This document shows, piece after piece, positions 39,049 to 58,976 of a DNA stretch of 64,000 bases. A model generated the notes under the pieces. That model ran no database searches, was not told where the DNA came from, and saw only the letters and a program-made list of their open reading frames with translations. Source of the stretch: Polaromonas sp. (GTDB taxonomy: Bacteria > Pseudomonadota > Gammaproteobacteria > Burkholderiales > Burkholderiaceae_C); the NCBI RefSeq assembly GCF_029945895.1, contig NZ_JAQSDL010000015.1:1-64000 (forward strand), written 5' to 3'. Position 1 is the stretch's first letter, and the number at the start of each line of letters is the position of its first letter. A program made the position numbers and the translations under genes.

Positions 39049-39056
39049 AAACTGTC

Positions 39057-40211: not shown

Positions 40212-40242
40212 TGTTGATTGATATCTAACCGAGGAGACGGCC

Positions 40243-40563: not shown

Positions 40564-40577
40564 GCCGGAGCAACATC

Positions 40578-41855
40578 ATGAAAAGACGCAATTTTGTTCA
40601 GGCATCCCTGGCCCTCGGCACACTGGGCAGCATGGCAGGTTGTGCCACCACGGGCAGAATCCCCAGCCGGGCCAAGGTGCTCGTCATCGGCGGCGGCTAC
40701 GGCGGCGCGACAGCGGCCAAGTATGTGCGCATGTTGTCGGACTACAAGATTGATGTGGTGATGGTCGAGCCCAACGCCAACTTCGTTTCCTGCCCGATCT
40801 CCAATCTGGTGGTCGGCGGCTCCAGGACCATGGGCGACATCACCACACCCTACGACAAACTCGGCGGCAGACACGGGGTCACCGTTGTCAAGGACATGGT
40901 CAGCACCATTGATGCAGCCAGGAAGACCGTGACGCTGGCAGGTGGCGCCACCATCGGTTATGACAAGCTGATCCTGTCTCCCGGTATCGACCTGATGTGG
41001 AACAGCATCGAAGGGCTGCAGGCCGCCAGTGCGTCGGGGCAGATTTTGCAGGCGTGGAAAGCGGGCCCGGAAACCCTGGCGCTGCGCCGCCAACTCGAAG
41101 CCATGCCCGACGGCGGTGTGTATGCCATCACCATTCCCCTGGCCCCCTACCGCTGCCCGCCGGGCCCCTATGAGCGCGCCAGCCAGGTGGCCAGCTACTT
41201 CAAGAAAGCCAAGCCGAAATCAAAAGTCCTGATTCTGGATGCCAATCCGGACGTCACCTCCAAGGGCCCACTGTTCAAGAAGTTCTGGGCCGAGAACTAC
41301 CAGGGCATGCTCGAGTACCGTGGCGGACACAAAGCCATTGCCGTCGATGCGCGGACAAACACGGTCAAATTCGATGTTCAGGACGACGTCAAGGCCCAGG
41401 TGCTCAACGTACTGCCGGACATGAGTGCTGGCGCCATTGCCGTGCGATCCGGCCTGGCCAATGCCAACAAGCGCTGGTGCGATGTCAACTACCTGACGTT
41501 TGAATCCACCGCCGCCAAAGACGTCCACATCATTGGCGATTCGACACTTTCCGCCCCACTGATGCCCAAGTCCGGCCACATGGCCAACTCACATGGAAAA
41601 GTCGTTGCCGCTGCCGTGGTCGCCCAGCTCTCGGGCCTGGAAGTCAACCCGCAGCCGGTACTGACCAACACCTGCTACAGCTTCGTCAACGACAAGCTGG
41701 TCGTTCATGTGGCGTCTGTCCATCAGTATGTGGCCGCTGAAAAAACGTTCAAGACGGTGGCCGGGTCGGGAGGGGTCTCTGCCGCGCCCAATGAGCTGGA
41801 AGGCGTGTACGCCTGGAACTGGGCGCAGAACATCTGGGCCGATACACTGCTGTAA
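40578..41855 (+). CDS. fccB: Flavocytochrome c sulfide dehydrogenase flavoprotein (FccB/SoxF)
   Basis: 425 residues with an exported, twin-arginine-like start (MKRRNFVQASLALGT). The FAD fold begins KVLVIGGGYGGATAAKYV. Cys72 in NFVSCPISNL is the covalent-flavin cysteine position, and the redox pair is in PYRCPPGPYERA and LTNTCYSFVN. The enzyme oxidises sulfide to sulfur or polysulfide in the periplasm and passes electrons to FccA. The gap to fccA is 14 bp. Confidence 0.93.
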   Translation: MKRRNFVQASLALGTLGSMAGCATTGRIPSRAKVLVIGGGYGGATAAKYVRMLSDYKIDVVMVEPNANFVSCPISNLVVGGSRTMGDITTPYDKLGGRHGVTVVKDMVSTIDAARKTVTLAGGATIGYDKLILSPGIDLMWNSIEGLQAASASGQILQAWKAGPETLALRRQLEAMPDGGVYAITIPLAPYRCPPGPYERASQVASYFKKAKPKSKVLILDANPDVTSKGPLFKKFWAENYQGMLEYRGGHKAIAVDARTNTVKFDVQDDVKAQVLNVLPDMSAGAIAVRSGLANANKRWCDVNYLTFESTAAKDVHIIGDSTLSAPLMPKSGHMANSHGKVVAAAVVAQLSGLEVNPQPVLTNTCYSFVNDKLVVHVASVHQYVAAEKTFKTVAGSGGVSAAPNELEGVYAWNWAQNIWADTLL

Positions 41856-41941
41856 GGAGGTGGGCAACTTGGTTGCTCTCACCCTTCACCTTCCACCTTC
41901 CCCCGCACTTGCCGGGGATTCATTTTTTTTGGGGACGACTC

Positions 41942-42394
41942 ATGCACAAACTTATTCTTTCCATGGCCATCGCGGCGTTTTCAGCCAGCGCTCTCACGAG
42001 CTGCGCCACCGCCAATGCCCAGAGCGTTCAGGCATCCCAGCCCGTCAAGGCGGTGTATCACCTCACCACGGGCGTCGAAACTGCTGCCGCCGCACTGAAC
42101 AACATCCAGAACCATTTGAACGCGGATCCCAAAGCCAGAATTGTGGTGGTCACCAACGGCCCGGGTATTGATTTCATGCTTCAGGACGCCAAGGACAGTC
42201 GTGGGCGCGAATTCAGTTCCATCGTCAGCACACTGGCCGGTCGTGGTGTCGAATTCCGGGTCTGCAACAACACGCTGACAACGCGCAATATTTCGCCGGA
42301 CAAACTGCTCATGGAAGCCAAAGTGGTTCCTTCCGGCGTCGCAGAAGCCGCCAACCTGCAAGCCCGGGAAGGTTTCGTCTACATCAAGCCCTGA
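41942..42394 (+). CDS. Exported DsrE-family protein
   Basis: 150 residues with a signal peptide and lipoprotein-like cysteine (SALTSCATA). The DsrE fold is indicated by KAVYHLTTGVETAAAALNNI, ARIVVVTNGPGIDFML and EFRVCNNTL, whose cysteine is at the usual sulfur-carrying position. DsrE-like proteins transfer persulfide sulfur. The placement after fccAB suggests it accepts sulfur formed from sulfide. A CACC/TTCC-rich spacer precedes it. Confidence 0.82.
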   Translation: MHKLILSMAIAAFSASALTSCATANAQSVQASQPVKAVYHLTTGVETAAAALNNIQNHLNADPKARIVVVTNGPGIDFMLQDAKDSRGREFSSIVSTLAGRGVEFRVCNNTLTTRNISPDKLLMEAKVVPSGVAEAANLQAREGFVYIKP

Positions 42395-42403
42395 TGCAGC
42401 GGC

Positions 42404-42751
42404 TCAGCGGCCGTTTTCGTACTCTGTCTCGATCGCGATCTGGGTACAAATGGCCCGGCACAGGGTCACGACGCGATCGTTGATGATCCGGTAAAAAATC
42501 TGCACCCCCTCACGGCGCTTGCCGATGACGCCGCTCTGATAAAGCGTGTTGAGGTGCTGGGACATATTGGGCTGGGTGGTGTCAATTTCCACGAGCAGCT
42601 GGCTGACGTTTTTCTCGCCGTTGCACAAACTGCTGATGATCTTCAGCCGCATCGGCGCGGACATGGCCCGAAAAAGTTCGGCAGCAGACTCAAAAACCTC
42701 ATCAGACTCGGTAATTGATGGGGAATTTGTTCTGCTTGCAAGCTTATCCAT
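42404..42751 (-). CDS. soxR: ArsR-family sulfur-responsive repressor SoxR
   Basis: 115 residues of winged-helix ArsR type. The recognition helix is in TTQPNMSQHLNTLYQSGVIG. Cys43 (SSLCNGEKNV) and Cys98/Cys102 (LCRAICTQ) match the cysteine positions used by BigR/SqrR-type persulfide sensors, where sulfide or persulfide forms a link and releases DNA. It is convergent with the DsrE gene and last in the cluster, and probably represses the sox and fcc promoters as well as its own. Confidence 0.88.
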   Translation of the reverse strand: MDKLASRTNSPSITESDEVFESAAELFRAMSAPMRLKIISSLCNGEKNVSQLLVEIDTTQPNMSQHLNTLYQSGVIGKRREGVQIFYRIINDRVVTLCRAICTQIAIETEYENGR

Positions 42752-42783
42752 AGATATCGAGTCAGCCCCAAAGGATGCCGGTA

Positions 42784-42805
42784 TTGTTCAATAATTGCGA
42801 ATATA
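42784..42805. promoter_or_regulatory. Candidate SoxR autoregulatory site
   Basis: TGTTCAATAATTG contains the reverse of AATTATTG (42789-42796), followed directly by CGAATATA (42798-42805), which also occurs before soxC. It lies 33-54 bp before the soxR start. The rest of the 365 bp to attL shows no gene apart from the terminator at 43044. Confidence 0.45.
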
Positions 42806-43043
42806 CACTTATTCGGCGCGGTTCCAATCCGGGGGTGACGATCAACGCCAATCGACGTCGCCGCACTCACTTCATCATGCCGGCGTGTTGCCCCTTCCTG
42901 TACGCCCTGAGGTTGACCTGTGCCGGTGTGACACCCATCAACCTGAATTTGTTTGACGTGTACTGGAATAACCCGGAATAGCCCGCTGGAGCACCGGCGA
43001 GTGTCCGTTGTGAGGTGAAGGGAAGAAACCGCGTCAGAAAGCA

Positions 43044-43074
43044 AAAATGCGGCCTTTTTAAGGGGCCGCATTTT
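43044..43074 (-). terminator. Original tRNA-Phe terminator, now left of attL
   Basis: AAAATGCGGCC and GGCCGCATTTT form an 11-bp stem. On the minus strand it is followed by T residues (CATTTTTGC). Before integration this hairpin lay about 43 bp after the tRNA-Phe 3' end, so it is probably the native tRNA terminator. Confidence 0.7.
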
Positions 43075-43116
43075 GGTAACTGCCTCGTTAGTCAATTGGT
43101 TAACGAGGAAACTGTT

Positions 43117-43163
43117 CTGGTGGCCTGGGGCGGAATCGAACCACCGACACAAGGATTTTCAAT
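43117..43163. repeat. attL: displaced 3' half of tRNA-Phe
   Basis: Identical over 47 bases to 58930-58976. It covers the tRNA from the anticodon loop to the CCA end and then diverges (AATTCTTG here, AATCCTCT at the tRNA). It is the left attachment site. Confidence 0.95.
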
Positions 43164-43199
43164 TCTTGAATTTATATATTTCCCTGCGTTGATTACCAG

Positions 43200-43216
43200 C
43201 TATATAATCTATATAG
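43200..43216. promoter_or_regulatory. CTATATA palindrome between attL and int
   Basis: CTATATA and TATATAG are perfect inverted arms with a three-base spacer, 37 bp inside attL. It could be an operator for int or a binding site for an excisionase-type protein. Confidence 0.4.
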
Positions 43217-43295
43217 ATCAATGACTTACACCAATTTAGCTGATCGGCGGATGGTCCTAGCATTGATTTAAATACATTAATATTCGGGAAATTTG

Positions 43296-43327
43296 CTTAC
43301 ATCCGCCGTTACATCCTTGCGATGTAA
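43296..43327. promoter_or_regulatory. Left cluster of TTACATC heptamers (candidate integrase arm sites)
   Basis: TTACATC occurs at 43297-43303 and 43309-43315, and inverted as GATGTAA at 43321-43327. All three lie just before int and are spaced by 12 bp. The 20-mer CTTACATCCGCCGTTACATC (43296-43315) is repeated exactly at 58844-58863 near the right end. Confidence 0.6.
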
Positions 43328-43347
43328 GCAACACCAAAGGGTTCAAG

Positions 43348-44745
43348 ATGGCAAAGGTTGTTTTCACGGCTGGCAGGGTGAGCGGGTTCACCTGTCCGGC
43401 TGGCAAGGCCCAAGCGTTTCTATGGGACGTGACCGCGCCGGGGCTGGCACTGCGGGCTACCCCTGCCGGGAAACCTGCCTATGTTTTTCAGGGCCGGTAT
43501 CAAGACAAGACCATCCGCCTGACCATTGGGAGCCTCGAAGCCTGGAGCATTGAACAGTCCCGCAGCAAGGCCCGCGAACTGCAACGACTGATTGACGAAG
43601 GCCAAGACCCCCGAGAACTGAAACGTGGCGCATTGGCCGCAACAGCTGCAAAACAAGCTGCCGCCGCTGCCAATGCTGTGACTGTGGGCGAAGCATGGAG
43701 CCGTTACACCAAAGAACGCCGCCCACATTGGGGCGCCCTGACCATCCGCGACCATGACCTGCTGGCGCAAGTCGGAGGCATACAACGCGAGCGCCGACCT
43801 GGTGTGCTGACCAAGGCCGGGCCGCTGGCTGAATTGATGCCGCTGCGCCTGGCCGACCTGACTGCGCCAGTGATTGAGGCGTGGGCAGGTCGCGAAGCCA
43901 AAGACCGCCCCGCCCGTGTTCGGTCTGCACTGCGATTGTTGAAAGCGTTTCTACGCTGGGCCGCGTCTGAACCAGACCTAAAAGGCAAGGCTGACCCCAC
44001 CGCTGCGAGCGCCAAAAAGACCCGCGAGTTAGCAGGCAAAGCCAAGCCAAAAAACGACTATCTCCAACGCGAGCAACTGCCCGATTGGTTCACCCATGTT
44101 CGCCAGATTCAAAATCCGGTTATCAGTGCTTACCTGCAATGCCTGCTTTTGACTGGTGCAAGGCGCGAGGAATTGGCTGCGCTGAAATGGGAGGACGTGA
44201 ATTTTCAGTGGAAGGGCCTCGACTTGAAGGACAAGATAGAAGGACGCCGAGCCGTGCCTTTAACGCCGTTTGTGGCGCAATTACTGGCTGGCCTGCCCAA
44301 GCGCAACGAGTGGGTGTTTTCAAGCGTACTGGTGCTTGACCCAACCCAAAAGAACACGGAACGCCGCGCCCGCTATCACGAAGCCAAAGGACATGCTGCG
44401 CCAATGGGTGACGTATCGACCCGCAGCGCATCAGGTCGATTGGTAGACCCCAGCAACGCCCACCGCAAAGCCTGCGCTGCTGCCGGGCTGGTGCTCACTT
44501 TGCACGGGCTTCGTCGTTCGTTCGCCTCACTGTGCGAGTGGCTGGACATACCCGGCGGAATCAGTGCACAGATTCAAGGCCATGCACCCCAAGGTGTGCG
44601 TGAACAGAACTACATCCGCCGCCCACTCGACCTGCTGCGTGTTCACCACGAGAAAATCGAGGCGTGGATTCTGGAGCAGGCTGGGATTGTGTTTGAACCC
44701 AAGGCAGAGCCGGGTAAGCTGCATCTGGTGGTGCACGCCGCATAA
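43348..44745 (+). CDS. Tyrosine-recombinase integrase of the island
   Basis: 465 residues. The N-terminal ~90 residues fit the P4-type integrase arm-binding domain, and the catalytic domain carries Arg271 (LTGARREEL), His386 and Arg389 (HGLRRSF), QGHAPQG and the nucleophile Tyr422 (NYIRR). The enzyme would integrate and excise the element at the tRNA-Phe 3' end. It is at the end opposite the rebuilt tRNA, reading inward. All catalytic residues are present, so it may be active. Confidence 0.93.
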   Translation: MAKVVFTAGRVSGFTCPAGKAQAFLWDVTAPGLALRATPAGKPAYVFQGRYQDKTIRLTIGSLEAWSIEQSRSKARELQRLIDEGQDPRELKRGALAATAAKQAAAAANAVTVGEAWSRYTKERRPHWGALTIRDHDLLAQVGGIQRERRPGVLTKAGPLAELMPLRLADLTAPVIEAWAGREAKDRPARVRSALRLLKAFLRWAASEPDLKGKADPTAASAKKTRELAGKAKPKNDYLQREQLPDWFTHVRQIQNPVISAYLQCLLLTGARREELAALKWEDVNFQWKGLDLKDKIEGRRAVPLTPFVAQLLAGLPKRNEWVFSSVLVLDPTQKNTERRARYHEAKGHAAPMGDVSTRSASGRLVDPSNAHRKACAAAGLVLTLHGLRRSFASLCEWLDIPGGISAQIQGHAPQGVREQNYIRRPLDLLRVHHEKIEAWILEQAGIVFEPKAEPGKLHLVVHAA

Positions 44746-45051
44746 CCGTTTTGCACCAGATAGGCCAGGATTAACTAACCTGACCGATGAGGAAAACCTT
44801 CATGTGGATGCACCGAAGAACTTTCATGCGCTGTCAGGAGCCGCATGACGCGCACATCAATCAATCGCTGGCGCCTAAATCGGCAAAGTTGGGCTGGTCA
44901 GGGACAGGCTAGATCGCATCAACGTTTGGCATTTTGCCCACTTGGAATCTCTCGAATTCCTTCAACATCACCTGATAGACTGCCCCGACGGACCTACCGC
45001 GTTCGGGCGCCTATATCCAACTAAAACAACCTGCTAGATTGTTACCGGAAC
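44746..45051. other. Gap between integrase and R-M operon
   Basis: 306 bp without an open frame of note or a strong hairpin. It presumably holds the promoter of the three-gene operon; the start at 45052 has only a weak CCGGAAC upstream. Confidence 0.6.
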
Positions 45052-45696
45052 ATGAAACTCGTCAAGTCCAAAAAGCGTGTCGCTGACCACGGGGAGGTCT
45101 TCACCCCCGCCTGGATGGTCGAGGCAATGCTCGATCTCGTCAAGGGCGAGACCGAACGTATAGACTCGCGTTTCTTGGAGCCGGCGTGCGGGAGCGGCAA
45201 CTTCCTCGTGCAGATCCTGCGCCGCAAGCTGGCCGCAGTGGAACTCAAATACGGGAAGTCAGATTTCGAGCGAAGGCACTATGCGCTGCTCGGACTGATG
45301 TGCCTCTACGGCATCGAACTGCTGCCAGACAACATTGCCGAGTGCCGCGCGAACATGCTGGAGATTTTTTCCGAGTATCTGCAGCTTGATGAGGCAGACG
45401 ATCTGTACCGCGCCGCTTTCTATGTGCTTTCGCAAAATCTTGTGCACGGTGACGCCATGACGATGCGCACCCAAGAGGCCCTGCCAATCACCTTTGCCGA
45501 GTGGGCCTATCTGGGCAAGGGCCGGTTCCAGCGGCGCGACTTCCGTCTCGACGTTCTCACCGGTTCGTCGGCATTCAGTGCTGAGGGGTCGCTCTTCGCC
45601 CAGCTCGGCAAGCACGAAATTTTCACGCCTACCAGAACTTATCCGCCCATGGTGGTAAACGAGCTGGCCACCAGTGTTCAGGAGGCCCCGGCATGA
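45052..45696 (+). CDS. Methylase-like subunit with SAM motif but no catalytic NPPY
   Basis: 214 residues. EVFTPAWMVEAMLDL (residues 15-29) and the SAM-binding motif I FLEPACGSGNFL (41-52) are those of N6-adenine methylases, but no N/D-PP-Y/F motif follows. GDAMTM and FQRRDF are conserved-looking later blocks. The protein is too short for a complete methylase with target recognition. Its stop overlaps the next ATG (ATGA), so it is probably made together with the NPPY-bearing partner and may form a split or regulatory half with it. Confidence 0.82.
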   Translation: MKLVKSKKRVADHGEVFTPAWMVEAMLDLVKGETERIDSRFLEPACGSGNFLVQILRRKLAAVELKYGKSDFERRHYALLGLMCLYGIELLPDNIAECRANMLEIFSEYLQLDEADDLYRAAFYVLSQNLVHGDAMTMRTQEALPITFAEWAYLGKGRFQRRDFRLDVLTGSSAFSAEGSLFAQLGKHEIFTPTRTYPPMVVNELATSVQEAPA

Positions 45697-47300
45697 CTAA
45701 CCAGGCCAGTTTTACCTTGCGCAACCGCAACCCCGACGTGCTGACGTGCATAGCCAACCTCTCCAACGACGAAGTGTTCACGCCGCCGGAGTTCGCCAAC
45801 AAGATGTTGGACACACTCGCCGAGGCGTGGGCAGCGGGCAACAAAGGCGCGAACCTCTGGGCCGACAAGACGGTCAAGTTTTTGGACCCTTGCACCAAAT
45901 CCGGCGTGTTTTTGCGTGAGATCACCGCCCGCCTTACCCAGGGGTTAGAGAAGGAAATTCCGAACCTGGAAGAGAGGGTGAATCACATCCTGACCCAGCA
46001 GGTATTCGGCATCGGCATCACGCAAATCACCAGCCTTTTGGCCCGCCGAAGCGTCTATTGCTCAAAGCGCGCCAACGGTTCGCACTCCATCGTCAAATCC
46101 TTCGCCAGCGATGATGGAAACATTTGGTTCAAGCGTATGAAGCACACGTGGGCTGGTGAAAAGTGCAAATTTTGTGGTGCTGGAAAATCAGTTTTTGATC
46201 GTGCGGCTGGCCTGGAAACCCACGCATACGCGTTCATTCATACAGAGAACATCAAAACCCGGCTGGCCGCGTTATTTGGAGGCAATATGCAATTCGACGT
46301 CATCATCGGGAACCCACCATATCAACTGGACGACGGTGGCTATGGGACCAGCGCTGCGCCTATCTACCAGCTCTTTGTGGAGAACGCTCTTGACCTTGAC
46401 CCACGCTTCGCGGTGTTCGTGACTCCGTCGCGGTGGATGGCAGGGGGCAAGGGGCTCGACAAGTACAGAGCGAAGATGCTTTCGGACAAGCGAATGCTGA
46501 GGGTCGTAGATTACCCAAAACTTTACGAGGGCTTTCCGGGCGTGAAGATTCGCGGCGGCATCTCCTATTTCGTATGGGATCGCAACCATGCTGGGCTGTG
46601 CGAGGTTGAGACCATCTGGGACGGGCAGCCAACTGGGCCTACCGTGGCACGCCATCTAGATGCCTACGACATCCTCGTTCGGCGCAACGAGGCGGTGCCG
46701 ATCCTTGAAAAGGTGAGGGCCAAACGCGAGCCCACGCTAGACGCACGCGTGTCCAGCCAGAAGCCGTTCGGTCTACGGACTTTCTTTCACGGCAAGCCGG
46801 ACAACAAGGGGCTGAAGCAGCCAATTAAGCTGTTCGGGTCGCAGCGCATCAGTTGGGTCGAACGCCGGGATATCCCGGTCAATTCTGAGTGGATTGACAA
46901 GTGGAAAGTCCTCATGACTCGAGTTCAAGGAACCAGCGCCGCAATCGAAACCAAGTTTCTGAGTAAGCCGGTTATCGCTGAGCCAGGAACAGCATGTACT
47001 GAGAGCTATGTCGTGGCAGGTGTCTTCGACGACGAGCGCGAGGCCTTGAGATATGGAAGCTACCTGCGTACCCGTTTCGCCAGATTCCTGGTCTCGCTTC
47101 GTAAATCCACTCAGGACGCACCAAAGAACGTGTATGCCTTCATTCCCGACCTTCCGTTGGCGAAGGAGTGGACCGACGCTAAGCTGTACAAACGCTACGG
47201 TCTGACGGCCGAAGAGATCGCATTCATCGAGTCGCAAGTGGCAGAGCACGACAGCGAGTTGTTCGATGCCGCCGTAGCAGCCGACAGCAACGATGAATAA
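45693..47300 (+). CDS. Eco57I-like DNA adenine methylase subunit
   Basis: 535 residues. It repeats the EVFTPPEFANKMLD block (27-40), then a variant motif I FLDPCTKSGVFL (63-74, Lys-Ser-Gly where many have Gly-x-Gly), and the catalytic motif IGNPPYQLDDGG (Asn207-Tyr210). A CKFCGAGKS cysteine pair near residue 157 could bind zinc. The C-terminal half (FVTPSRWMAGGKGLDKY, GVKIRGGISYFVWD) resembles the Eco57I/type II-like methylases and probably recognises DNA. It overlaps both neighbours. Confidence 0.85.
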   Translation: MTNQASFTLRNRNPDVLTCIANLSNDEVFTPPEFANKMLDTLAEAWAAGNKGANLWADKTVKFLDPCTKSGVFLREITARLTQGLEKEIPNLEERVNHILTQQVFGIGITQITSLLARRSVYCSKRANGSHSIVKSFASDDGNIWFKRMKHTWAGEKCKFCGAGKSVFDRAAGLETHAYAFIHTENIKTRLAALFGGNMQFDVIIGNPPYQLDDGGYGTSAAPIYQLFVENALDLDPRFAVFVTPSRWMAGGKGLDKYRAKMLSDKRMLRVVDYPKLYEGFPGVKIRGGISYFVWDRNHAGLCEVETIWDGQPTGPTVARHLDAYDILVRRNEAVPILEKVRAKREPTLDARVSSQKPFGLRTFFHGKPDNKGLKQPIKLFGSQRISWVERRDIPVNSEWIDKWKVLMTRVQGTSAAIETKFLSKPVIAEPGTACTESYVVAGVFDDEREALRYGSYLRTRFARFLVSLRKSTQDAPKNVYAFIPDLPLAKEWTDAKLYKRYGLTAEEIAFIESQVAEHDSELFDAAVAADSNDE

Positions 47301-49830
47301 GAGTATTGACGAAATCCTTGTGCCCAAGCCGGTAGCGCGGCCACGCATCTACGCCTACGCCATAGAAGACAAGGCGCACGCGGGTCTGCTCAAGGTGGGG
47401 CAGACCACGCGCAATGTGAAACAGCGCGTCGCCGAACAGCTTAAGACTGCCGCGATTAAGAACTACAAGATCGAGCTCGACGAGTCCGGAGAGCGCGACG
47501 ACGGCACGATTTTTACCGATCACGAGGTGCGCGCAGCCCTCGCCAGAAAGGGCATCAAGAACACCGAACTGGAGTGGATGCGCTGCACGCTTAAGGACGT
47601 GAAGACTGTGCTCACTGAGCTTCGCACGGGAAAGAAGTTCACCGGCACGCACTCGCAGACTTTCGCGATGCGGAAGGAACAGGCTGTAGCGGTGGACAAG
47701 ACCTACGACTACTTCCACTCGATCTGGGCGGAGGACAAACAAGCCGCCCCGCGCTTTCTATGGAATGCCAAGATGCGCTTTGGCAAAACCTTCACCAGCT
47801 ACCAGCTCGCAAAAAAACTCGGGGCGAAGCGAGTGCTGGTGCTTACCTTCAAGCCCGCAGTGGAGGACGCGTGGCAGACCGACCTCGAATCGCACGCAGA
47901 TTTCGACGGCTGGCAATACATGTCTCGCAATTCTGAAAGCGACCCGACCGATATTTCCAAGAAGAAGCCACTGGTCTACTTCGGGTCCTTTCAAGATCTG
48001 CTGGGGCGTGATTCGGTGGGTAACATCAAAGCCAAGAACGAATGGCTTCATGTGGTGAACTGGGATTTGGTGGTGTTTGACGAATACCACTTCGGCGCGT
48101 GGCGCGACACCGCCAAGGAGTTGTTCGAGGGCGAAGACGCTGCAGTCGCAAAAAAGGAAACAAAGCTGGAGTACGCCGCCGGTCTGGAAGACGTGAACGA
48201 AGACCTCGGCGTGCTCTCCACTAAGGAGACCCAGTTCCTGCCCATCAACACCAAAGCCTACCTCTATCTCTCCGGCACGCCCTTCAAGGCGCTGGCCACA
48301 GGCGAATTTATTGAAGAGCAGATTTTCAATTGGACCTACACTGACGAACAGCGGGCTAAGGAGGAGTTTGCAAAGAAGAGCCCCACCAAATGGAACCCTT
48401 ATGGCGCGCTGCCGCAGATGCGGCTGCTAACCTATCAGATGCCGGACGAGCTAGTGGCGATTGCTAGCGCCGGAGAGTTTGATGAGTTCGATCTCAACGC
48501 GTTTTTTGAGGCCACTGGAACAGGCGCCAAGGCGCAGTTCAAGCACAAGAGCGATGTACAGAAGTGGCTGGACATCATTCGTGGCGGCTATGCGCCGAGG
48601 GCGGTAGAACATCTCAAGACTGGCACCCGGCCGCCGTTCCCCTATTCGGACGTACGCCTGCTCCCATATCTCCAGCACTCGTTTTGGTTTCTGCCCAACG
48701 TCGCGGCCTGCCACGCGATGGCGAATCTGTTGGCCGAGAAGCACAATGTTTTCTGGCACGACTACGACGCGCTTGTCGCCGCTGGTGCCGCGGCGGGTAT
48801 CGGCTTGGAGGCATTGCCACCCGTGCGTGAGGCCATCGGCAGCGGCTTCGAAACCAAGACCATCACGCTTTCGTGCGGCAAGCTCACGACTGGCGTCACT
48901 GTGGCGCAGTGGTCTTCCATCCTGATGCTGCGCAATCTGAAGTCGCCAGAAACTTACTTCCAGGCGGCGTTTCGCGTGCAGTCGCCTTGGTCGATCAAGA
49001 ACCCCAACGGTGATGACCCGAAGGAGGAGGAAATCCTCAAGCCGATTTGCTTCGTGTTTGACTTCGCACCCACGCGGGCGCTGCGGCAGCTCTCTGAATA
49101 CGGGATCGGGCTCTCGCCCAACGAGCTGAACCCAGAAAATGCTGTCAAGGACCTCGTATCGTTTCTGCCTGTCCTTGCCTACGACGGTGCGAATATGACG
49201 CAAATCGATGCGGGCGGCATCCTCGACATCGCAATGGCCGGGACCTCAGCCACGCTGCTTGCACGCAAATGGGAGAGTGCGCTGCTCGTCAATGTGGATA
49301 ACGACACACTGCGCCGTATCCTCAACAACCCAGAGGCGATGGCCGCCATGGAACGCATCGAAGGGTGGCGCGCGCTTGGCGACAACATCATCGAAACCAT
49401 CATCAACAAGAGCGATCTCGTGAAGAAGCTAAAGGATAAGGCGAAGGGCAAGGACTTGTCGGCCAAAGAGAAGAAGATGCTAACCGAGGAGGAGAAGGAA
49501 TATAAGTCCAAGCGGAAGCTGATACAGGAGAAACTCATCAAGTTCGCCACCCGAATTCCAGCATTCATGTATCTGACCGATTTTAGAGAGAACAAGCTGC
49601 AAGACGTGATCACCAAAATAGAGCCCGGCTTGTTCGAGACGGTCACGGGGCTGACTGTGAAGGACTTTCACCTGCTCGTGCGCCTCAAGGTGTTTAACAC
49701 AGAGCAGATGAACCAGGCGGTATTTGCGTTCCGGCGTTACGAAGATGCATCACTCCGCTATACCGGTGTCGAGAGCCACCAGGGTCTTACTCATTACGGC
49801 TTATATGACACCGTCGTTGCGAAGGAGTGA
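47293..49830 (+). CDS. GIY-YIG-like nuclease/SF2 helicase fusion of the R-M-like operon
   Basis: 845 residues. The N-terminus resembles T5orf172/GIY-YIG nucleases: IYAYAI (19-24), GLLKVGQTTRNVKQRV (31-46). A superfamily-2 helicase follows with Walker A NAKMRFGKTFTSYQ (Lys165), DEYH at 263-266, LSGTPFKAL at 327, LTTGVTVAQW and AAFRVQSPW (Arg561). A lysine-rich helical segment (KKLKDKAKGKDLSAKEKK) precedes the C-terminal domain. I infer an ATP-driven nuclease acting on unmethylated DNA. It overlaps the methylase stop by eight bases. Confidence 0.85.
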   Translation: MNKSIDEILVPKPVARPRIYAYAIEDKAHAGLLKVGQTTRNVKQRVAEQLKTAAIKNYKIELDESGERDDGTIFTDHEVRAALARKGIKNTELEWMRCTLKDVKTVLTELRTGKKFTGTHSQTFAMRKEQAVAVDKTYDYFHSIWAEDKQAAPRFLWNAKMRFGKTFTSYQLAKKLGAKRVLVLTFKPAVEDAWQTDLESHADFDGWQYMSRNSESDPTDISKKKPLVYFGSFQDLLGRDSVGNIKAKNEWLHVVNWDLVVFDEYHFGAWRDTAKELFEGEDAAVAKKETKLEYAAGLEDVNEDLGVLSTKETQFLPINTKAYLYLSGTPFKALATGEFIEEQIFNWTYTDEQRAKEEFAKKSPTKWNPYGALPQMRLLTYQMPDELVAIASAGEFDEFDLNAFFEATGTGAKAQFKHKSDVQKWLDIIRGGYAPRAVEHLKTGTRPPFPYSDVRLLPYLQHSFWFLPNVAACHAMANLLAEKHNVFWHDYDALVAAGAAAGIGLEALPPVREAIGSGFETKTITLSCGKLTTGVTVAQWSSILMLRNLKSPETYFQAAFRVQSPWSIKNPNGDDPKEEEILKPICFVFDFAPTRALRQLSEYGIGLSPNELNPENAVKDLVSFLPVLAYDGANMTQIDAGGILDIAMAGTSATLLARKWESALLVNVDNDTLRRILNNPEAMAAMERIEGWRALGDNIIETIINKSDLVKKLKDKAKGKDLSAKEKKMLTEEEKEYKSKRKLIQEKLIKFATRIPAFMYLTDFRENKLQDVITKIEPGLFETVTGLTVKDFHLLVRLKVFNTEQMNQAVFAFRRYEDASLRYTGVESHQGLTHYGLYDTVVAKE

Positions 49831-49849
49831 GGGTCTTTATCAGGTTCGT

Positions 49850-49990
49850 TTCAGAAAACGGTGAACGTCCAGAAGCGGAAACGGGGTCGCTACGGGCGGC
49901 AGATCGGCAAGGTGTTGGTCAATGGGAAGGATGTCAACCTGGTGTAGTCCGAGCGCGAGATGGCAAAGAGATCAAAAAATCTAGTCGCCT
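49850..49990 (+). pseudogene. Fragment of a thermonuclease (SNase-type) gene
   Basis: Between the helicase gene and the CRP-like site, a plus frame reads TVNVQKRKRGRYGRQIGKV and then LVNGKDVNLV before TAG at 49945-49947. This is the middle of a staphylococcal-nuclease-like domain (RYGR...GKV.V.GKDVN). Neither the start nor the C-terminal part is present; the following bases hold only DGKEIKKSSR in another frame. It is a decayed remnant. Confidence 0.65.
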
Positions 49991-50032
49991 CTACATGAGC
50001 TTCAGCCACCGCAAATTTTAAGCAAGGCTGGT

Positions 50033-50050
50033 GTGTGATTTAAATCACAC
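50033..50050. promoter_or_regulatory. Perfect CRP-like palindrome
   Basis: GTGTGATTTAAATCACAC is an 18-bp perfect palindrome matching TGTGA-N6-TCACA. It lies 36 bp before the ATG of the lipoprotein gene, where a CRP/FNR-superfamily protein could act as activator or repressor. Confidence 0.6.
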
Positions 50051-50085
50051 GCTGCGACAGCGAGGGGACTGCCATACTCCGACAC

Positions 50086-50559
50086 ATGAAACACCAAACC
50101 CAAATTTTTAGCCTCTCTCTGATTGTTCTGGGCGGATGCGCCACCACGAACACCCCGGAGGAAATTAACTACTATTCTGAGGTTTTCCATTACAGCAATC
50201 TCTGTGCCAATGCCCAGTTGATGGACCTTGACACCGCTGCTCGAGGGAAGGTCATGGCAATGAGTAATATTTATCGTCAGGAAACAGGGCGAGTACAAGC
50301 AAAGGTTAGTGAGCTTATTAGTGCGGGAAGTCGTGCAGATAAGAAAACGTGTGATGTGTTGGCATCCCTAATAAACGCGACTAAGCCTTCGACAACTCAG
50401 GCCAGCAATCAAGCCACATCACCTGCCTATGCTCCTATGGTTGTCCCCAACTTCGGTGCAGCGGTCGCCCCAAGCCAACCCTTCACCCTGAATCCGCCCA
50501 AGTTCGGTGTAGAGCGGGTGATGTGCAAGAAGGTTGGTGAGAACATGTTCTGTAAATGA
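50086..50559 (+). CDS. Small predicted lipoprotein of the island
   Basis: 157 residues with a lipoprotein signal (LIVLGGCATT, cysteine about residue 18). A helical middle (GKVMAMSNIYRQETGRVQAKV) leads to a threonine/proline-rich linker and a C-terminus with two cysteines (RVMCKKVGENMFCK). I do not recognise the family. It stands alone after a CRP-like site and faces the RepA-type gene. A role in surface exclusion or phage blocking is possible but not shown. Confidence 0.7.
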   Translation: MKHQTQIFSLSLIVLGGCATTNTPEEINYYSEVFHYSNLCANAQLMDLDTAARGKVMAMSNIYRQETGRVQAKVSELISAGSRADKKTCDVLASLINATKPSTTQASNQATSPAYAPMVVPNFGAAVAPSQPFTLNPPKFGVERVMCKKVGENMFCK

Positions 50560-51262
50560 TGTAAGGGCCAAAAATCCCCCTGAATGGGTTTTTCAAGGGC
50601 GATTGAGATTGATAACCTGAATATTCAAAACCCGCCCCCGTCACTGCACGTCTGGAATCGAAAGACAGTATATTTGTCTCAAATTTCAGTACCGATACAC
50701 AGCCGAAATTTTGAAAAGTTGTTGCTGAGGCAAAGCGACTTCTCCGATACATCTACCCGATGAACTAACGATGTGTAATCGTTCAATTCGTACGATATCC
50801 AGCCGATACACTGACTTTCAACCCTAAAGACTTCCCTTGAGCGTGAACCGGAGGGCTGGAGGGCTGGAGGGCTGGAGGGCGGTGACCCGTAGGCGCAGCC
50901 GGGAGGGTCACCAGTCCGACATGCCCCATGGCATGGGCCATATCAAGACAAGGCATCCGATAAATTTGCGAAGCAACTGTCTTGTTCAGTGGTTTTTTTG
51001 TCGGCACTTCAATAGTAAATTAATCACCAGCCACCGGAACTGCGTCGTGGACCCTCCGTCGCTGCGCGCCGGTCTCCACTCCTGGTCCCTAAGCTGGTGA
51101 CTAATTCATTGGCTCGAGATTCCTGGCTGCAAACATGGTTTCCCGTTTTTCCCGCTCTTCCTGTTTTGGGCATTCCTGGACCGTTCGGGTATGCTCCCGT
51201 TTTCCCGGTTCACCCGCCCCCTCTATAAGAGGGGGTGGAAACGGGAAGGGAACCCGGTCAGC
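50560..51262. other. Repeat-rich non-coding region downstream of the RepA-like gene
   Basis: No convincing gene in 700 bp. It contains four tandem GGAGGGCT units (50850-50880), a GGTGACCC/GGGTCACC inverted repeat (50881-50912), several CCCGTTTT tracts, and a perfect CCCCCTCT-ATA-AGAGGGGG hairpin (51217-51235) just past the end of the RepA-like gene. The region could hold an origin or a two-way terminator; neither is proven. Confidence 0.5.
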
Positions 51263-52537
51263 TTAATGTTCATGCGGTTGGTTGTCCCACAACCAATCCC
51301 CCTTCGTACCAACAACGTCTTTACCCACAAGCCCGGCAATTGCCGCTTTGGCGCGCTCCTTTTGGTATTTAGCTGCCACCGGTATCAAAGGCGCAACAAT
51401 CGCAAGTGCGTCATCAAGGCTAATGCACGGTCTTCCTGGTGGTGCACCATCTTTGTCAACATCAACAGACTTGCTAAGCGGCTCCCTCAGGGCGTTATGA
51501 GCGATGACTTGATTACTCCCGAGGGTCGGCATTTTCTTTTGAATGGTTCGCACTGATTCATCCGGCACAACCACGCACGAAGTGATTTCGTCCCCATCGT
51601 TATCGTGTCCCAATGACACAACCTCCAACTTGAAAGGATGTGATGCACCGTCTTCACCGTCCTTGCTTTTGGCAACTAGCCATTCGCGCTGGTCACCGTG
51701 ACGCCTGACTTCTATGGCGCAATCCAGGGCAGCATGAAGAGAAGAGTGCCCCCGCATTCCTTTCGATGCGTCCTTGCCGGTGTGGTGAATCAACAGCACC
51801 AGACCGCCGATGAAATCTTGCAGTAACTTCGCTGCGGCAATAATTTGTCCCATAGCCTTGCTGTCATTCTCATCACTTCCTGGCGTGGCTCGGCTCAGCG
51901 TATCCAATACAACCACATCACCAGTGCCAGCGGCTTGGATGGCTTCCACCAGTTCGTTAATATCGTCAGCATCCAGCAGCCTAAACGGCTGCACAATATA
52001 ACGGATATTCATGGAAATCGAACCATGTTGGATGCGATGTGCGGAAACACGGCCAGCCAACCCCGCTTCACCCTCGAGGACGATATAAGTCACGGAACAC
52101 TGCTTCACCTTTCGCCCAAACCATTCACGGCCAGATGCAAGGCTTTGCAGCATATTGAGTACAAGGAACGACTTTCCTGAACCACTCGGGCCGTACAGAG
52201 CAGCTACTCCATGTTCAGGCAACACATTTTTGATTCGCCATTGCATTGGGGAGAGCTTGCACAGGTCATCATCAGTCAGCAGGTCGTAACGCGATTCAGG
52301 AGCTTCAGGGGAAACCGGCAGGTTACTCGCTGCATCAGGGTCATCGTCCTCCAACAAGTCGTTGGCAGCCATGTCGGATGGCATATGCATTAGTACCCCA
52401 CCATCATCAGGGAAAGCGTCGGCGAATAATGAGCGCTTAAACTCGTTGCGAAGATCGAACTTTTCCGATAAATGCATCACGCAATGTTTTGGATTGGCCG
52501 CCTCGGTTGCAACCGAGGCGTTTTCATCAGGGTTCAT
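51263..52537 (-). CDS. RepA-like AAA/RecA-fold ATPase
   Basis: 424 residues. After an acidic N-terminus come Walker A LYGPSGSGKSFL (Gly116-Ser123), Walker B GDVVVLDTLS and the following HHTGKDASKGMRG, the arrangement of RSF1010 RepA-like/AAA_25 helicases of plasmids and islands. It could unwind DNA for replication of the excised element. Its ATG overlaps the stop of the upstream small gene (ATGA). I see no primase domain. Confidence 0.8.
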   Translation of the reverse strand: MNPDENASVATEAANPKHCVMHLSEKFDLRNEFKRSLFADAFPDDGGVLMHMPSDMAANDLLEDDDPDAASNLPVSPEAPESRYDLLTDDDLCKLSPMQWRIKNVLPEHGVAALYGPSGSGKSFLVLNMLQSLASGREWFGRKVKQCSVTYIVLEGEAGLAGRVSAHRIQHGSISMNIRYIVQPFRLLDADDINELVEAIQAAGTGDVVVLDTLSRATPGSDENDSKAMGQIIAAAKLLQDFIGGLVLLIHHTGKDASKGMRGHSSLHAALDCAIEVRRHGDQREWLVAKSKDGEDGASHPFKLEVVSLGHDNDGDEITSCVVVPDESVRTIQKKMPTLGSNQVIAHNALREPLSKSVDVDKDGAPPGRPCISLDDALAIVAPLIPVAAKYQKERAKAAIAGLVGKDVVGTKGDWLWDNQPHEH

Positions 52538-52791
52538 AGAATGGCTACCCCTACAATTTTGTAGCAGGCTATTCCTGTATGAATCCGACCTGACCCATCA
52601 GTTATCGTTTGGAAAATGGTTTCAAACATCACACCCTTCTTTTTGAGTCTGGCAATGCCAGCAGCAGGACTCAATATCCCTTTCTTTAAGAAGTCCAAAG
52701 TACTGACGTAACCGGATTGGTTGGCATTCAATATCTCAACCATCTCTTTCAATGTTCGCGGCAGATCGGGGGCTTTTATATTGATCGCCAT
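52534..52791 (-). CDS. Small winged-helix-like protein upstream of the RepA-like gene
   Basis: 85 residues from the ATG at 52791 (the open frame extends to 52902 but would overlap the upstream gene widely). The sequence PRTLKEMVEILNANQSGYV followed by TLDFLKKGILSPAAGIARL looks like a small helix-turn-helix domain for modular elements. The stop overlaps the RepA-like start, so it is translationally coupled and probably regulates or assists it. Confidence 0.65.
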   Translation of the reverse strand: MAINIKAPDLPRTLKEMVEILNANQSGYVSTLDFLKKGILSPAAGIARLKKKGVMFETIFQTITDGSGRIHTGIACYKIVGVAIL

Positions 52792-52793
52792 TT

Positions 52794-53042
52794 TTATTTG
52801 ACCCCCATTGCTGATTTGATCGCCGCAACGCTCCAAGCCAGTCGGCCGTTTAGCACTAGCGGGCGCAAACCATCGGTTGGGAAGTCGCCATGACAATGCC
52901 AACCTCTCAAAGTCTGAGGGCGGCGGTTCATGTAAAAGGCGGCGGCGTTGGTGTCAACGTGGGTACGTTGCACTTGCGCGAGGGGTGTGAAGGTCGGGAT
53001 CCTCGCCTGTTGGCGAGTATCGGTGCTGTGTAGGACTTGCAT
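52794..53042 (-). CDS. Small DNA-binding (AlpA/excisionase-like) protein
   Basis: 82 residues. VDTNAAAFYMNRRPQTLRGW and a final GRLAWSVAAIKSAMGVK form the winged helix-turn-helix seen in AlpA/excisionase-like and plasmid regulatory proteins. It is first in the three-gene RepA-like unit. It may control replication or direct excision of the island. Confidence 0.72.
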   Translation of the reverse strand: MQVLHSTDTRQQARIPTFTPLAQVQRTHVDTNAAAFYMNRRPQTLRGWHCHGDFPTDGLRPLVLNGRLAWSVAAIKSAMGVK

Positions 53043-53222
53043 GTACGCTTTCTTACCTAGCAGCTCTGGCCTGCAAACATTGCAAGGCGTCCGGGCTAGG
53101 AATAAGCGAATTGGAAATTTCCGGGGTTTTTTAGAAGGTATCCCGGAATTAGTAAGCCGTTCTAAATCATCGACTTGCGTTTACTGCAATGACTGAAGCC
53201 GGAATTAATTCCCGGAATTTGA

Positions 53223-54086: not shown

Positions 54087-54226
54087 GTTCTTTTCTCCCT
54101 AAACGTGCATCAGTTCATACAAGTTCTATGCATCCAGATTCAGACGCTTCGCCATAACTGGCGAATTAGATTCATGTACCTCAGACTGTATCGGCTACTG
54201 CACTTGGCTCGACATATGGTGAAATT

Positions 54227-54303
54227 TTAAAAATTTTGAGGGAAATTTTTAATCTTGAAAGCATCGGGGTTTAGTGAAAAATCTAATCTGGGTGTCAACC
54301 CAG
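54227..54303. promoter_or_regulatory. Structured AT-rich leader before the 62-residue protein gene
   Basis: TTAAAAATTT and AAATTTTTAA (54227-54236, 54243-54252) are perfect inverted arms, and CTGGGT-GTCA-ACCCAG (54288-54303) forms a tetraloop hairpin. A nine-C run follows near 54336. The 340-bp gap between 54087 and 54426 otherwise shows no gene. Confidence 0.5.
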
Positions 54304-54426
54304 AACTTAAAGGGAGTGCGACACACAGCGGATTACCCCCCCCCGCTTCACCCTGCGTGACGTTTCTTGGGCTACGCCCATGCTGTGGGGGTTAGCTACC
54401 TCACTCCATCAACCTTAAGGATCGTC

Positions 54427-54615: not shown

Positions 54616-54620
54616 CTCGG

Positions 54621-54650
54621 CCTACCCTCACGGGTAGGTTAAGTTTTTTA
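54621..54650 (+). terminator. Rho-independent terminator of the 62-residue gene
   Basis: CCTACC-CTCACG-GGTAGG (54621-54638) is flanked by AACT and AGTT and followed by TTTTTT (54644-54649), starting six bases after the stop codon. Confidence 0.85.
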
Positions 54651-54754: not shown

Positions 54755-56050
54755 TTACGCCTTGGCTACGGGTAGGTCAGCCCAGCAAGTCGTGTATTGC
54801 GGCGTCAAAAGGTTCTGCTTCATTTCAAAATGACGTTGCGGCCCCTTCACACCGGCGCTGCCCAATGTCACGGTGCCACGGCCGTAACGGTCATTCAGCT
54901 TGTCAAGGGTTCCCATCAACTGTCCGCGTGCCGGTGGTTCCGGCTCCAGATCCAGTTCGCCCTGCTCGATGCCACCGTCTTGCAGATCCAGCAGCATCAC
55001 GCCGGCCTTGGCAAAGTTGAAGCCTGGCCGGTAGATTGCCTCGATGCCGCGCACTGCGGCGTTCACCAGGGCCATGCTGTCGTCTGTGGGGCGACGAAGC
55101 GGAAGAATCAAGCTGCGGCTGTACTTTGGCCCGGGCCGAAATGCGCTGGTGTGCGCAAACACCTGTAGCTGCCCCGCTTTGCTGCCCTGGGCACGCAACT
55201 TCACGGCCGCGCCGCTAGCAAAGCGGGTGACGGCCGCCACAAGGTCAGCAAGCTCTGTCACCGCACCGCCGAAGCTTCGGGTATAGGCAATTTCTTTTTT
55301 TGGTGCCGGCTGGTCCTCCAGGGAGATGCACTGTTGGCCTTGCAGTTCGCGCACAGTGCGCTCAAGTACCACGCTCCAGCGTCTGCGCACAGTGGCAGGG
55401 TCCAGCCGCACCAAGTCGAGCACGGTCAACACGCCGCCTTCGTTCAGCTGATCAGCAATCCGCCGGCCAACGCCCCACACCTCACCCACGGCGGTGGCTT
55501 GCAGCACGGCGTCCAGATCAGCCGCCGGCAAGTTCGCAAGATTGCACACACGGGCCAGTTCGGCGGGGTAGCTGCCTGGCTTGCGATCGGCACTCTTGGC
55601 AACGTGGTTGGCCAGCTTGGCGAGGGTTTTGGTGGCTGCGATGCCGATGCCGGTGGGGATGCCCGTCCACTGCAACACGCGCTCACGCACGCGCCTGGCG
55701 CGGTCGGTGATGTCGCCGCGCACGCCGGCCATGTCAATAAAAGACTCGTCGATGCTGTAGATCTCTTGCCCCGGCCCCAGCCCGGCGGCGACGGACATCA
55801 TGCGGTCGCTCATGTCGCCGTACAGCACGAAGTTGGCTGACAAGGCCACCACGCCGTGTTCCTCCGCCAACTGGCGGCATTCAAACCAGGGTGCACCCAT
55901 GCGAATGCCCAGTGCCTTGGCCTCGTTGCTACGGGCGATGGCGCAGCCGTCATTGTTGCTGAGCACGACCACGGGCCGGTTCTTCAACGCCGGTCGAAAC
56001 GCGCGCTCGCAGCTTACGTAAAAATTGTTCCCATCTACCAGCGCAAACAT
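54755..56050 (-). CDS. umuC: Translesion DNA polymerase V catalytic subunit UmuC
   Basis: 431 residues of Y-family polymerase. The metal-binding residues are in ALVDGNNFYVSCERAF and YSIDESFIDM, and GIGIAATKTLAKLANH supplies the helix-hairpin-helix. The C-terminal UmuC extension ends in CWADLPVAKA. It copies damaged DNA with UmuD'. It begins four bases after the umuD stop and is in one SOS-controlled unit. It is the island's own mutagenic polymerase. Confidence 0.94.
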   Translation of the reverse strand: MFALVDGNNFYVSCERAFRPALKNRPVVVLSNNDGCAIARSNEAKALGIRMGAPWFECRQLAEEHGVVALSANFVLYGDMSDRMMSVAAGLGPGQEIYSIDESFIDMAGVRGDITDRARRVRERVLQWTGIPTGIGIAATKTLAKLANHVAKSADRKPGSYPAELARVCNLANLPAADLDAVLQATAVGEVWGVGRRIADQLNEGGVLTVLDLVRLDPATVRRRWSVVLERTVRELQGQQCISLEDQPAPKKEIAYTRSFGGAVTELADLVAAVTRFASGAAVKLRAQGSKAGQLQVFAHTSAFRPGPKYSRSLILPLRRPTDDSMALVNAAVRGIEAIYRPGFNFAKAGVMLLDLQDGGIEQGELDLEPEPPARGQLMGTLDKLNDRYGRGTVTLGSAGVKGPQRHFEMKQNLLTPQYTTCWADLPVAKA

Positions 56051-56054
56051 TGCG

Positions 56055-56495
56055 TCACTTGAAGCGTTTGATCGTGGCGGTAACCACGCCGCAGATCGTC
56101 ATGGTCTGACCGTCGCGGAACAGGATGGCTGGAAACGTGGGGTTGGCGGGCCGCAACTGCACCACGCCAGCGCGGCGCCAGAACTGCTTGACAGTGAAAT
56201 CGCCGTCAACCTCTGCCACCACGATGTCGCCGTGCTTGGCGGGAAGCAGCGCCCGGTTGACGACCACGATGTCGCCGTCAAAAATGCCCAGCTCGATCAT
56301 GGACTGCCCCGAGATCCGCCACATGAAGGTCGCGGCGGGATGGGTGATCAGCAGCTCATTCAGGTCATGCCGCTTGACGGCAAAATCTTCAGCTGGGGAT
56401 GGGAACCCGGCGGGCAGGTTGCCATCCACCCACGCAACGGGCACGCGTGGGCCGGAAGAAAAGGCCGTGGCGTCTGGCGGATTTATACTGTGCAT
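56055..56495 (-). CDS. umuD: UmuD-type self-cleaving peptidase
   Basis: 146 residues of the LexA/S24 family. The cleavage site is Ala29-Gly30 (LPAGFPSPAED), the catalytic serine Ser65 (RISGQSMIELG) and lysine Lys103 (DFTVKQFW). RecA-stimulated self-cleavage would give UmuD', which joins UmuC. The ATG lies inside the LexA box at 56484-56507, so repressor binding covers the translation start region. Confidence 0.93.
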   Translation of the reverse strand: MHSINPPDATAFSSGPRVPVAWVDGNLPAGFPSPAEDFAVKRHDLNELLITHPAATFMWRISGQSMIELGIFDGDIVVVNRALLPAKHGDIVVAEVDGDFTVKQFWRRAGVVQLRPANPTFPAILFRDGQTMTICGVVTATIKRFK

Positions 56496-58929: not shown

Positions 58930-58976
58930 CTGGTGGCCTGGGGCGGAATCGAACCACCGACACAAGGATTTTCAAT
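58930..58976. repeat. attR: 3' half of the rebuilt tRNA-Phe
   Basis: 47-base identical copy of 43117-43163. This copy continues into the tRNA 5' half and so marks the right boundary of the element. Confidence 0.95.

What the first reader, a model, noticed from the sequence alone, without database searches (positions are those of the whole stretch)
45052..49830. Three-gene overlapping operon: split methylase plus GIY-YIG-like/helicase fusion
Seen: three genes overlap by 4 and 8 bases. The first has SAM motif I (EPACGSGNF) but no NPPY; the second has NPPY and a variant motif I; the third joins a GIY-YIG-like N-terminus to an SF2 helicase. Known: classical types I, III and ISP combine these activities differently, and GIY-YIG endonucleases driven by SF2 helicases are uncommon. 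Inferred: an ATP-dependent restriction or anti-phage system with a two-protein methylase. I cannot match it to a named system.
Basis: partly seen in the sequence, partly recalled or inferred. Interest (0 to 1): 0.75.

Follow-up and report, generated by a model that had tools for sequence, protein, structure and literature searches.

The report
DrdVI-type restriction system with split methylase
This is a mobile DNA-guarding restriction system of an already named but little-studied family (DrdVI), in which the DNA-marking enzyme comes in two halves made by two genes and a third gene makes a motor-driven DNA cutter.

Summary
In detail: three intact genes (45052-45696, 45693-47300, 47293-49830) overlap by 4 and 8 bases and encode M1 (SAM motif, no NPPY), M2 (NPPY, variant motif I, recognition region) and a T5orf172/GIY-YIG plus SF2-motor protein. 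It is a DrdVI-family system: plasmid pDrdVI carries the same genes in the same order (R 78%, M1 70%, M2 56% identity), and M1-2.DrdVI (GCAGCC) and M1-M2.MaeIV (GCACY) are published m6A methylases. The window's recognition region differs from DrdVI's (33% identity, against 70% in the catalytic part), so its target is probably not GCAGCC. Degeneration is complementary: 113 of 113 M1 keep the GxG SAM motif and lack motif IV; 107 of 107 M2 keep NPPY and have lysine for the first SAM-loop glycine. Two viral contigs encode one protein joining M1 straight to M2's NPPY half; its model resembles complete adenine methylases. Most likely M1 and M2 form one composite methylase that also targets the nuclease-motor (inferred). 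The operon is cargo of a 15.8-kb tRNA-Phe-integrated element. Membership is ordinary; the split-site architecture is the interesting part.

The parts
43117..43163 (+). Left attachment repeat (copy of tRNA-Phe 3' end)
   Evidence: Exact 47-bp direct repeat of 58930-58976
43348..44745 (+). Tyrosine integrase (465 aa)
   Evidence: Pfam Arm-DNA-bind_3 and Phage_integrase above cut-off
45052..45696 (+). M1: SAM-binding half of the split m6A methylase (214 aa)
   Evidence: Pfam N6_Mtase and MmeI_Mtase; 70% identical to pDrdVI M1
45205..45231 (+). M1 motif I EPACGSGNF (residues 52-60)
   Evidence: Both loop Gly in 113 of 113 distinct M1
45693..47300 (+). M2: degenerate SAM half (about 1-190), NPPY half and target-recognition region (535 aa)
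   Evidence: Pfam Eco57I E=7e-35; 56% identical to pDrdVI M2
45885..45911 (+). M2 degenerate motif I DPCTKSGVF (residues 65-73)
   Evidence: Lys69 in 107 of 107 distinct M2
46311..46322 (+). M2 catalytic motif IV NPPY (residues 207-210)
   Evidence: 107 of 107 distinct M2
46605..47042 (+). M2 variable target-recognition region (about residues 305-450, boundaries approximate)
   Evidence: 33% identity to DrdVI against 70% for residues 15-300
47293..49830 (+). R/T: GIY-YIG nuclease plus SF2 motor (845 aa)
47341..47628 (+). R/T GIY-YIG (T5orf172) domain, about residues 17-112
   Evidence: Pfam T5orf172; Y20, K34, G36, D76, E94 in 110 of 110, R45 in 109 of 110
47650..49137 (+). R/T SF2 motor core, about residues 120-615
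   Evidence: G164-K165-T166 and D263-E264-H266 in 110 of 110; fold match to RadD, INO80 and LlaBIII motors
51263..52537 (-). RepA-like AAA_25 ATPase of the element
   Evidence: Pfam AAA_25 E=1.4e-38
54755..56050 (-). UmuC-like polymerase on the element
   Evidence: Pfam IMS, IMS_C, DUF4113
56055..56495 (-). S24 peptidase (UmuD-like) on the element
   Evidence: Pfam Peptidase_S24
58930..58976 (+). Right attachment repeat, inside tRNA-Phe (gaa) 58931-59006 (-)

Best explanation
A DrdVI-family restriction-modification system carried by an integrated element. M1 brings the SAM-binding half and M2 brings the NPPY catalytic half and the target-recognition region; together they make one adenine methylase that marks one strand of a short asymmetric site (m6A by the M1-M2 pair is in print for DrdVI and MaeIV; the division of labour and the window's own activity are inferred). 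The third protein shows no recognisable target-recognition domain, so it is inferred to find its site through M1-M2. When the site is unmethylated its SF2 motor moves along DNA using ATP and its GIY-YIG domain cuts, probably when two complexes meet, as in Type ISP and III enzymes (inferred, untested). The window's recognition region belongs to a different group from DrdVI's, so its target is unlikely to be GCAGCC.
For: Same three genes in the same order on pDrdVI; identities 78/70/56%. [quoted passage not shown] coli (whole text). [quoted passage not shown] Complementary degeneration: GxG in 113 of 113 M1; Lys at the first Gly and NPPY in 107 of 107 M2; no [DNS]PP[YFW] past position 100 of the open frame in 113 of 113 M1. 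Natural M1-M2C fusions in 2 viral loci, with a confident methylase model (pLDDT 87.5, pTM 0.85) matching CamA at Z 22.5, rmsd 5.3, 414 aligned. Nuclease and motor residues kept in 109-110 of 110 R/T; motor resembles LlaBIII, Z 18.1, rmsd 4.8, 392 aligned. TRD 33% against catalytic part 70% identity to DrdVI. Patchy: 3 of 200 genomes of the family, own included.
Against: No cleavage, methylation or phage data for this operon; no cleavage data for DrdVI in what I read. Locus L033 has whole M2 and R/T but no M1 match within about 4.8 kb upstream, and L041 has only the NPPY half of M2 and no M1: decayed copies, or M1 is not always needed nearby. The fusions are only two and may come from partial records. 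The fold searches did not test the GIY-YIG domain (spans 120-615). The R/T model is only moderate (pLDDT 76.8, pTM 0.61). The acid at one conserved GIY-YIG position is Asp76, where I recall Glu as usual (not tested).
Confidence: 0.8

Rival explanations
1. M2 is by itself a complete, active methylase with a variant SAM loop, and M1 is a regulatory or structural pseudo-subunit.
For: M2 keeps a full methylase order (X, I-like, II-like, IV, TRD) and Pfam Eco57I spans 102-280. L033 has M2 and R/T with no M1 found nearby. PMC4335053 (passage) says split methyltransferases can show partial activity with just one subunit.
Against: Lys replaces the first loop Gly in 107 of 107 M2 and the position matching the motif II acid is Gly, Ala, Ser or Pro in 107 of 107, while M1 keeps GxG and Glu/Asp in 113 of 113. 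Both natural fusions keep M1's SAM half and drop M2's.
Confidence: 0.17
2. It works like a Type ISP enzyme broken into subunits: directional translocation and collision of converging motors, with GIY-YIG in place of Mrr. This overlaps the best explanation and differs only in fixing the cleavage step.
For: R/T motor aligns with LlaBIII at Z 18.1, 392 residues; the fused M1-M2C model aligns with the methylase parts of LlaGI and LlaBIII at Z 18.6 and 18.4; relatives with GIY-YIG, motor and M2 in one chain exist (L011, L012, L184-L190).
Against: Three proteins, not one; other SF2 motors such as RadD (Z 20.6) score as high or higher. No translocation data.
Confidence: 0.45
3. A modification-based defence that does not cut DNA (BREX-like), the GIY-YIG domain being structural.
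For: The fused methylase model resembles BrxX (Z 18.7, rmsd 5.1, 435 aligned).
Against: GIY-YIG residues are kept in 109-110 of 110; no BREX partner families among the neighbours scanned with Pfam.
Confidence: 0.07

Closest known systems
DrdVI (M1.DrdVI, M2.DrdVI, DrdVI), Deinococcus wulumuqiensis NEB 479 plasmid pDrdVI
   Same: Three genes, same order, same domains; R 78%, M1 70%, M2 56% identical
   Different: Target-recognition region only 33% identical; window operon is on a tRNA-integrated element, not a plasmid
MaeIV (M1-M2), Methanococcus aeolicus
   Same: Described in print as of the DrdVI-like split methylase family; single-strand m6A at GCACY (passages)
   Different: Sequence not compared here
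Type ISP enzymes LlaGI, LlaBIII
   Same: SF2 motor plus adenine methylase with one recognition domain; both parts match by fold
   Different: Single chain with Mrr-family nuclease (abstract); here three proteins and a T5orf172 domain
OspHL35III (Type IIG-like, PMC4752239)
   Same: Methylase/TRD, translocase and GIY-YIG nuclease in one Type IIG-like set
   Different: MmeI-like unsplit methylase; translocase and nuclease are separate proteins (figure legend)
CglI (R.CglI with helicase-like H.CglI)
   Same: ATP-dependent restriction with a helicase-like motor and a short asymmetric site
   Different: Heterotetramer of separate nuclease and motor proteins (abstract)

Membership tests
DrdVI-type split methylase R-M | M1, M2, GIY-YIG/translocase gene order | tested here: met
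   same order in the 57 of 80 genome loci where all three are complete
DrdVI-type split methylase R-M | Homology of each protein to its DrdVI counterpart over nearly its whole length | tested here: met
   78, 70, 56% identity; 96-100% of each query covered
DrdVI-type split methylase R-M | Methylase motifs divided between M1 and M2 | tested here: met
   Window has EPACGSGNF in M1 and NPPY in M2; GxG 113 of 113 M1, NPPY 107 of 107 M2
DrdVI-type split methylase R-M | GCAGCC specificity (of DrdVI itself, not of the family: MaeIV has GCACY) | tested here: inconclusive
   TRD identity 33% suggests a different target
DrdVI-type split methylase R-M | m6A methylation by M1+M2 and cleavage by R | not testable with these tools
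   Needs methylome and cleavage assays
Type ISP | Single polypeptide | tested here: not met
   Three ORFs
Type ISP | Mrr-family N-terminal nuclease | tested here: not met
   N-terminus is Pfam T5orf172 above cut-off; no Mrr-type family matched
Type ISP | SF2 dsDNA motor fold | tested here: met
   LlaBIII Z 18.1, rmsd 4.8, 392 aligned; moderate model
Type I | Separate HsdS specificity subunit | tested here: not met
   Operon neighbours on the + strand are the integrase and a 157-aa ORF without Pfam match; variable region lies in M2
Type III | Mod/Res pair with beta-class methylase | tested here: inconclusive
   M2 best hit is Eco57I; motif-order class not formally tested
BREX | PglZ, BrxC and other partner genes beside the methylase | tested here: not met
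   No such families among the neighbours scanned; not every small ORF was scanned

The most novel reading that the evidence does not exclude
M2 carries a permanently disabled copy of the SAM-binding half that is displaced or complemented in trans by M1, and this disabled half serves to couple the methylase to the nuclease-motor. Phages that took the methylase without the nuclease dropped that half and fused M1 directly to the catalytic half. This would be a methylase whose assembly state chooses between marking and cutting.
Probability: 0.35. Interest if true: 0.62.

Novelty: new member of a known kind. Interest (0 to 1): 0.4.

Why it matters
It names the operon and moves the question from 'what system is it' to a testable one: how two proteins, each missing the other's half of the methylase motifs, make one active site, and why the family keeps a degenerate half. 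A variable recognition region beside a very conserved motor makes the family a possible source of new specificities.

Tried and rejected
NCBIfam had no match for the R/T protein. PADLOC gave only generic Type II/IIG models as best hits: PDLC03375 and PDLC03626 for M2, PDLC03626 for R/T. A repeat search limited to 42300-58000 missed the attachment repeat because the tRNA lies just outside it. Sequence search of solved structures with the R/T profile: 0 matches at E 0.01. The fold searches listed no GIY-YIG nuclease for R/T; the motor fills the list, so this says nothing either way. A search with the L119 fusion found only its own contig again. Among phage records two covered 80% or more of it; both carry R/T too, and in PV036449 M1 and M2 are separate genes. 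The search for R/T in the two fusion records was empty; they may be fragments, so absence is not proven. The left flank of the element is not syntenic with the same-genus genome: window 40341-41849 matches G099 on the other strand, beyond the right-flank match, so only the right boundary is firm. An alignment of an M1-M2 join with 114 other rows put M2 rows on the M1 part and was discarded. An alignment of the natural fusion with full-length M2 rows was misplaced at NPPY and was replaced by one with M2 rows cut to the NPPY half.

Rows dropped: the 113 M1 and 107 M2 are letter-distinct open frames that passed score and coverage cuts (132 M2 before duplicates were removed; 112 M1 if one frame contained in another is dropped). 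Partial proteins, the two fusions and the one-chain relatives are not in them. The 110 R/T are distinct near-full-length proteins from the window and from related-loci loci; the annotated plasmid and phage records L002-L014 and the genome-search loci L001 and L099-L102 are not in that count. The structure alignments used 58 of the 110 R/T, and for the fusion 26 M1, 35 M2 C-terminal parts and both fusions.

Full report
What is there. Three intact + strand ORFs, 45052-45696, 45693-47300 and 47293-49830, overlap by 4 and 8 bases. Pfam: the first hits N6_Mtase and MmeI_Mtase, the second Eco57I (E=7e-35), the third T5orf172 (a GIY-YIG-type family; that label is recalled) at 20-109 and ResIII at 124-277, each above its cut-off.

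What it is. tblastn of the third protein in plasmids gave 79 records. One is plasmid pDrdVI of Deinococcus wulumuqiensis NEB 479, with the same three genes in the same order; identities are R 78%, M1 70%, M2 56%. [quoted passage not shown] coli ER2796. [quoted passage not shown] trehalosi relative. [quoted passage not shown] The system is therefore a new member of a named family. A search for the word DrdVI found these three papers.

How common. All three genes, complete and in order, are in 57 of the 80. Of the other 23, 18 lie too near a contig end to hold what is missing (in L019, L038 and L043 the 0.8-1.1 kb present upstream of R/T shows no M2), L020, L075 and L085 have a broken frame, L033 has M2 and R/T but no M1 match within about 4.8 kb upstream, and L041 has only the NPPY half of M2 and no M1. 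The last two do not fit a strict need for an adjacent M1, unless they are decayed. In the host's own family 3 of 200 genomes, the window's included, carry R/T: patchy, as for mobile defence genes.

The split methylase. On alignments of the distinct, well-covered sequences held, both loop glycines of motif I are present in 113 of 113 M1 and Glu or Asp ends motif II in 113 of 113; no [DNS]PP[YFW] follows position 100 of the open frame in 113 of 113 M1. In M2 the first loop glycine is lysine in 107 of 107, the position matching the motif II acid is Gly, Ala, Ser or Pro in 107 of 107, and NPPY is present in 107 of 107. The two proteins are thus degenerate in opposite halves. Divergent relatives have GIY-YIG, motor and M2 in one chain; the four of these whose letters I read keep the lysine. 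L011, L012 and L190 still have a separate M1; in L184, L185, L187 and L188 none was found, in L186 and L189 only a weak match.

Natural fusions. Two viral-collection loci encode one protein made of M1 (to just past its RRDF motif) joined to M2 from MQFDVIIGNPPY onwards, without M2 residues 1 to about 193 (L118, L119). Their junctions differ by 8 residues and they are 58% identical, so they are not one recent copy. L119 lies near a phage-type RNA polymerase gene (PF00940). No R/T was found in either record, but both may be fragments. The L119 protein models well (pLDDT 87.5, pTM 0.85) and matches complete adenine methylases: CamA Z 22.5 (rmsd 5.3, 414 aligned), BrxX 18.7, LlaGI 18.6, M.BseCI 18.1, M.TaqI 17.4. 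Its alignment held M1 proteins, M2 C-terminal parts and the second fusion. I read this as evidence that M1 and the NPPY half of M2 are the two working halves of one enzyme. In the intact operon M2 still has its own degenerate half next to the NPPY half; whether M1 displaces it is not shown.

The nuclease-motor. In 110 distinct R/T proteins Y20, K34, G36, D76 and E94 of the GIY-YIG region are invariant, R45 is kept in 109, and G164-K165-T166, D263-E264-H266, S327-G328-T329-P330 and Q557/R561 of the motor are invariant. The window's model (pLDDT 76.8, pTM 0.61) matches SF2 motors over 120-615: RadD and INO80 Z 20.6, LlaBIII Z 18.1 with 392 residues aligned, the longest alignment in the listed rows. 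No recognition domain is recognisable in it by Pfam, so site choice probably comes from M1-M2 (inference). One-strand methylation, reported for MaeIV, means that newly replicated sites are unmethylated; Type ISP and III enzymes cope by needing inverted site pairs (PMC5737866 passages). The same rule is the likeliest here but is untested.

Specificity. Mean identity of the 106 other M2 to the window's, in 20-residue bins, is 47-93% from residue 15 to 294 and 22-43% from 295 to 454. Against DrdVI it is 70% for residues 15-300 but 33% for 305-450. Eleven other M2 (L111, L060, L088, L082, L083, L084, L097, L081, L090, L098, L121) are 64-83% identical to the window over 305-450 and only 30-35% to DrdVI; at least 14 others are 64-70% identical to DrdVI there. 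So the target is probably not GCAGCC. The window's group includes Corynebacterium crudilactis (L098) and Propioniciclava tarda (L083).

Setting. An exact 47-bp repeat, 43117-43163 and 58930-58976, is the 3' end of tRNA-Phe (58931-59006). A same-genus genome has the tRNA and the window's right flank contiguous at 76% identity (G099:C1:1810983-1816022). The interval, about 15.8 kb, is 56% G+C against 64% for the rest of the window and holds the integrase (43348-44745), the R-M operon, an AAA_25 RepA-like gene, and umuC- and S24/umuD-like genes. The left neighbourhood is not syntenic in that genome. The operon is cargo of an integrated element.

Verdict. Ordinary as a family member, so interest is modest; the complementary degeneration and the viral fusions are what I would follow. 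In the searches made I saw no paper describing those two points, but only open-licence papers are held and, but for PMC6430315, I read listings, abstracts and passages, not whole texts.

Noticed in passing
L118 5635-7221; L119 314-1876: Two viral-collection contigs encode a single-chain M1-M2C methylase; L119 lies near a phage-type RNA polymerase gene. Possible phage self-protection against DrdVI-type restriction.
   Followed up: partly
L033 (M2 4859-6505, second M2 N-terminal piece 758-1012); L041 (M2 NPPY half 3757-4770): Two genome loci lack M1 despite room upstream; L033 also has a separate piece matching M2 residues 1-85 at 88% identity, L041 has only M2 residues 198-535.
   Followed up: partly
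L021, L025, L030, L035, L039, L042, L044, L051, L060, L068, L089, L096: Of 57 complete genome loci, 8 have more than 150 bp between the M1 and M2 open frames and 6 between M2 and R/T (two of them in both), up to about 2.2 kb. The guests were not identified.
   Followed up: no
window 43117-58976: 15.8-kb tRNA-Phe-integrated element that also carries umuC and S24 (umuD-like) genes.
   Followed up: partly
L007/L098, Corynebacterium crudilactis pCRULAC2: Between M2 and R/T of the DrdVI-type operon the annotation shows a Tn3-family transposase, an IS and aminoglycoside-resistance genes.
   Followed up: no
L011, L012, L184-L190: Relatives with GIY-YIG, motor and M2 in one chain of 1306-1467 aa; the four whose letters were read keep the lysine-type degenerate motif I, KSG or KTG.
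   Followed up: partly
window 37958-42751: Sulfur-oxidation-type cluster left of the element: metallo-beta-lactamase fold, sulfur transporter, flavocytochrome c sulfide dehydrogenase, DsrE, ArsR.
   Followed up: no
window 50850-50880: Short tandem repeat with 8-bp unit GGAGGGCT.
   Followed up: no
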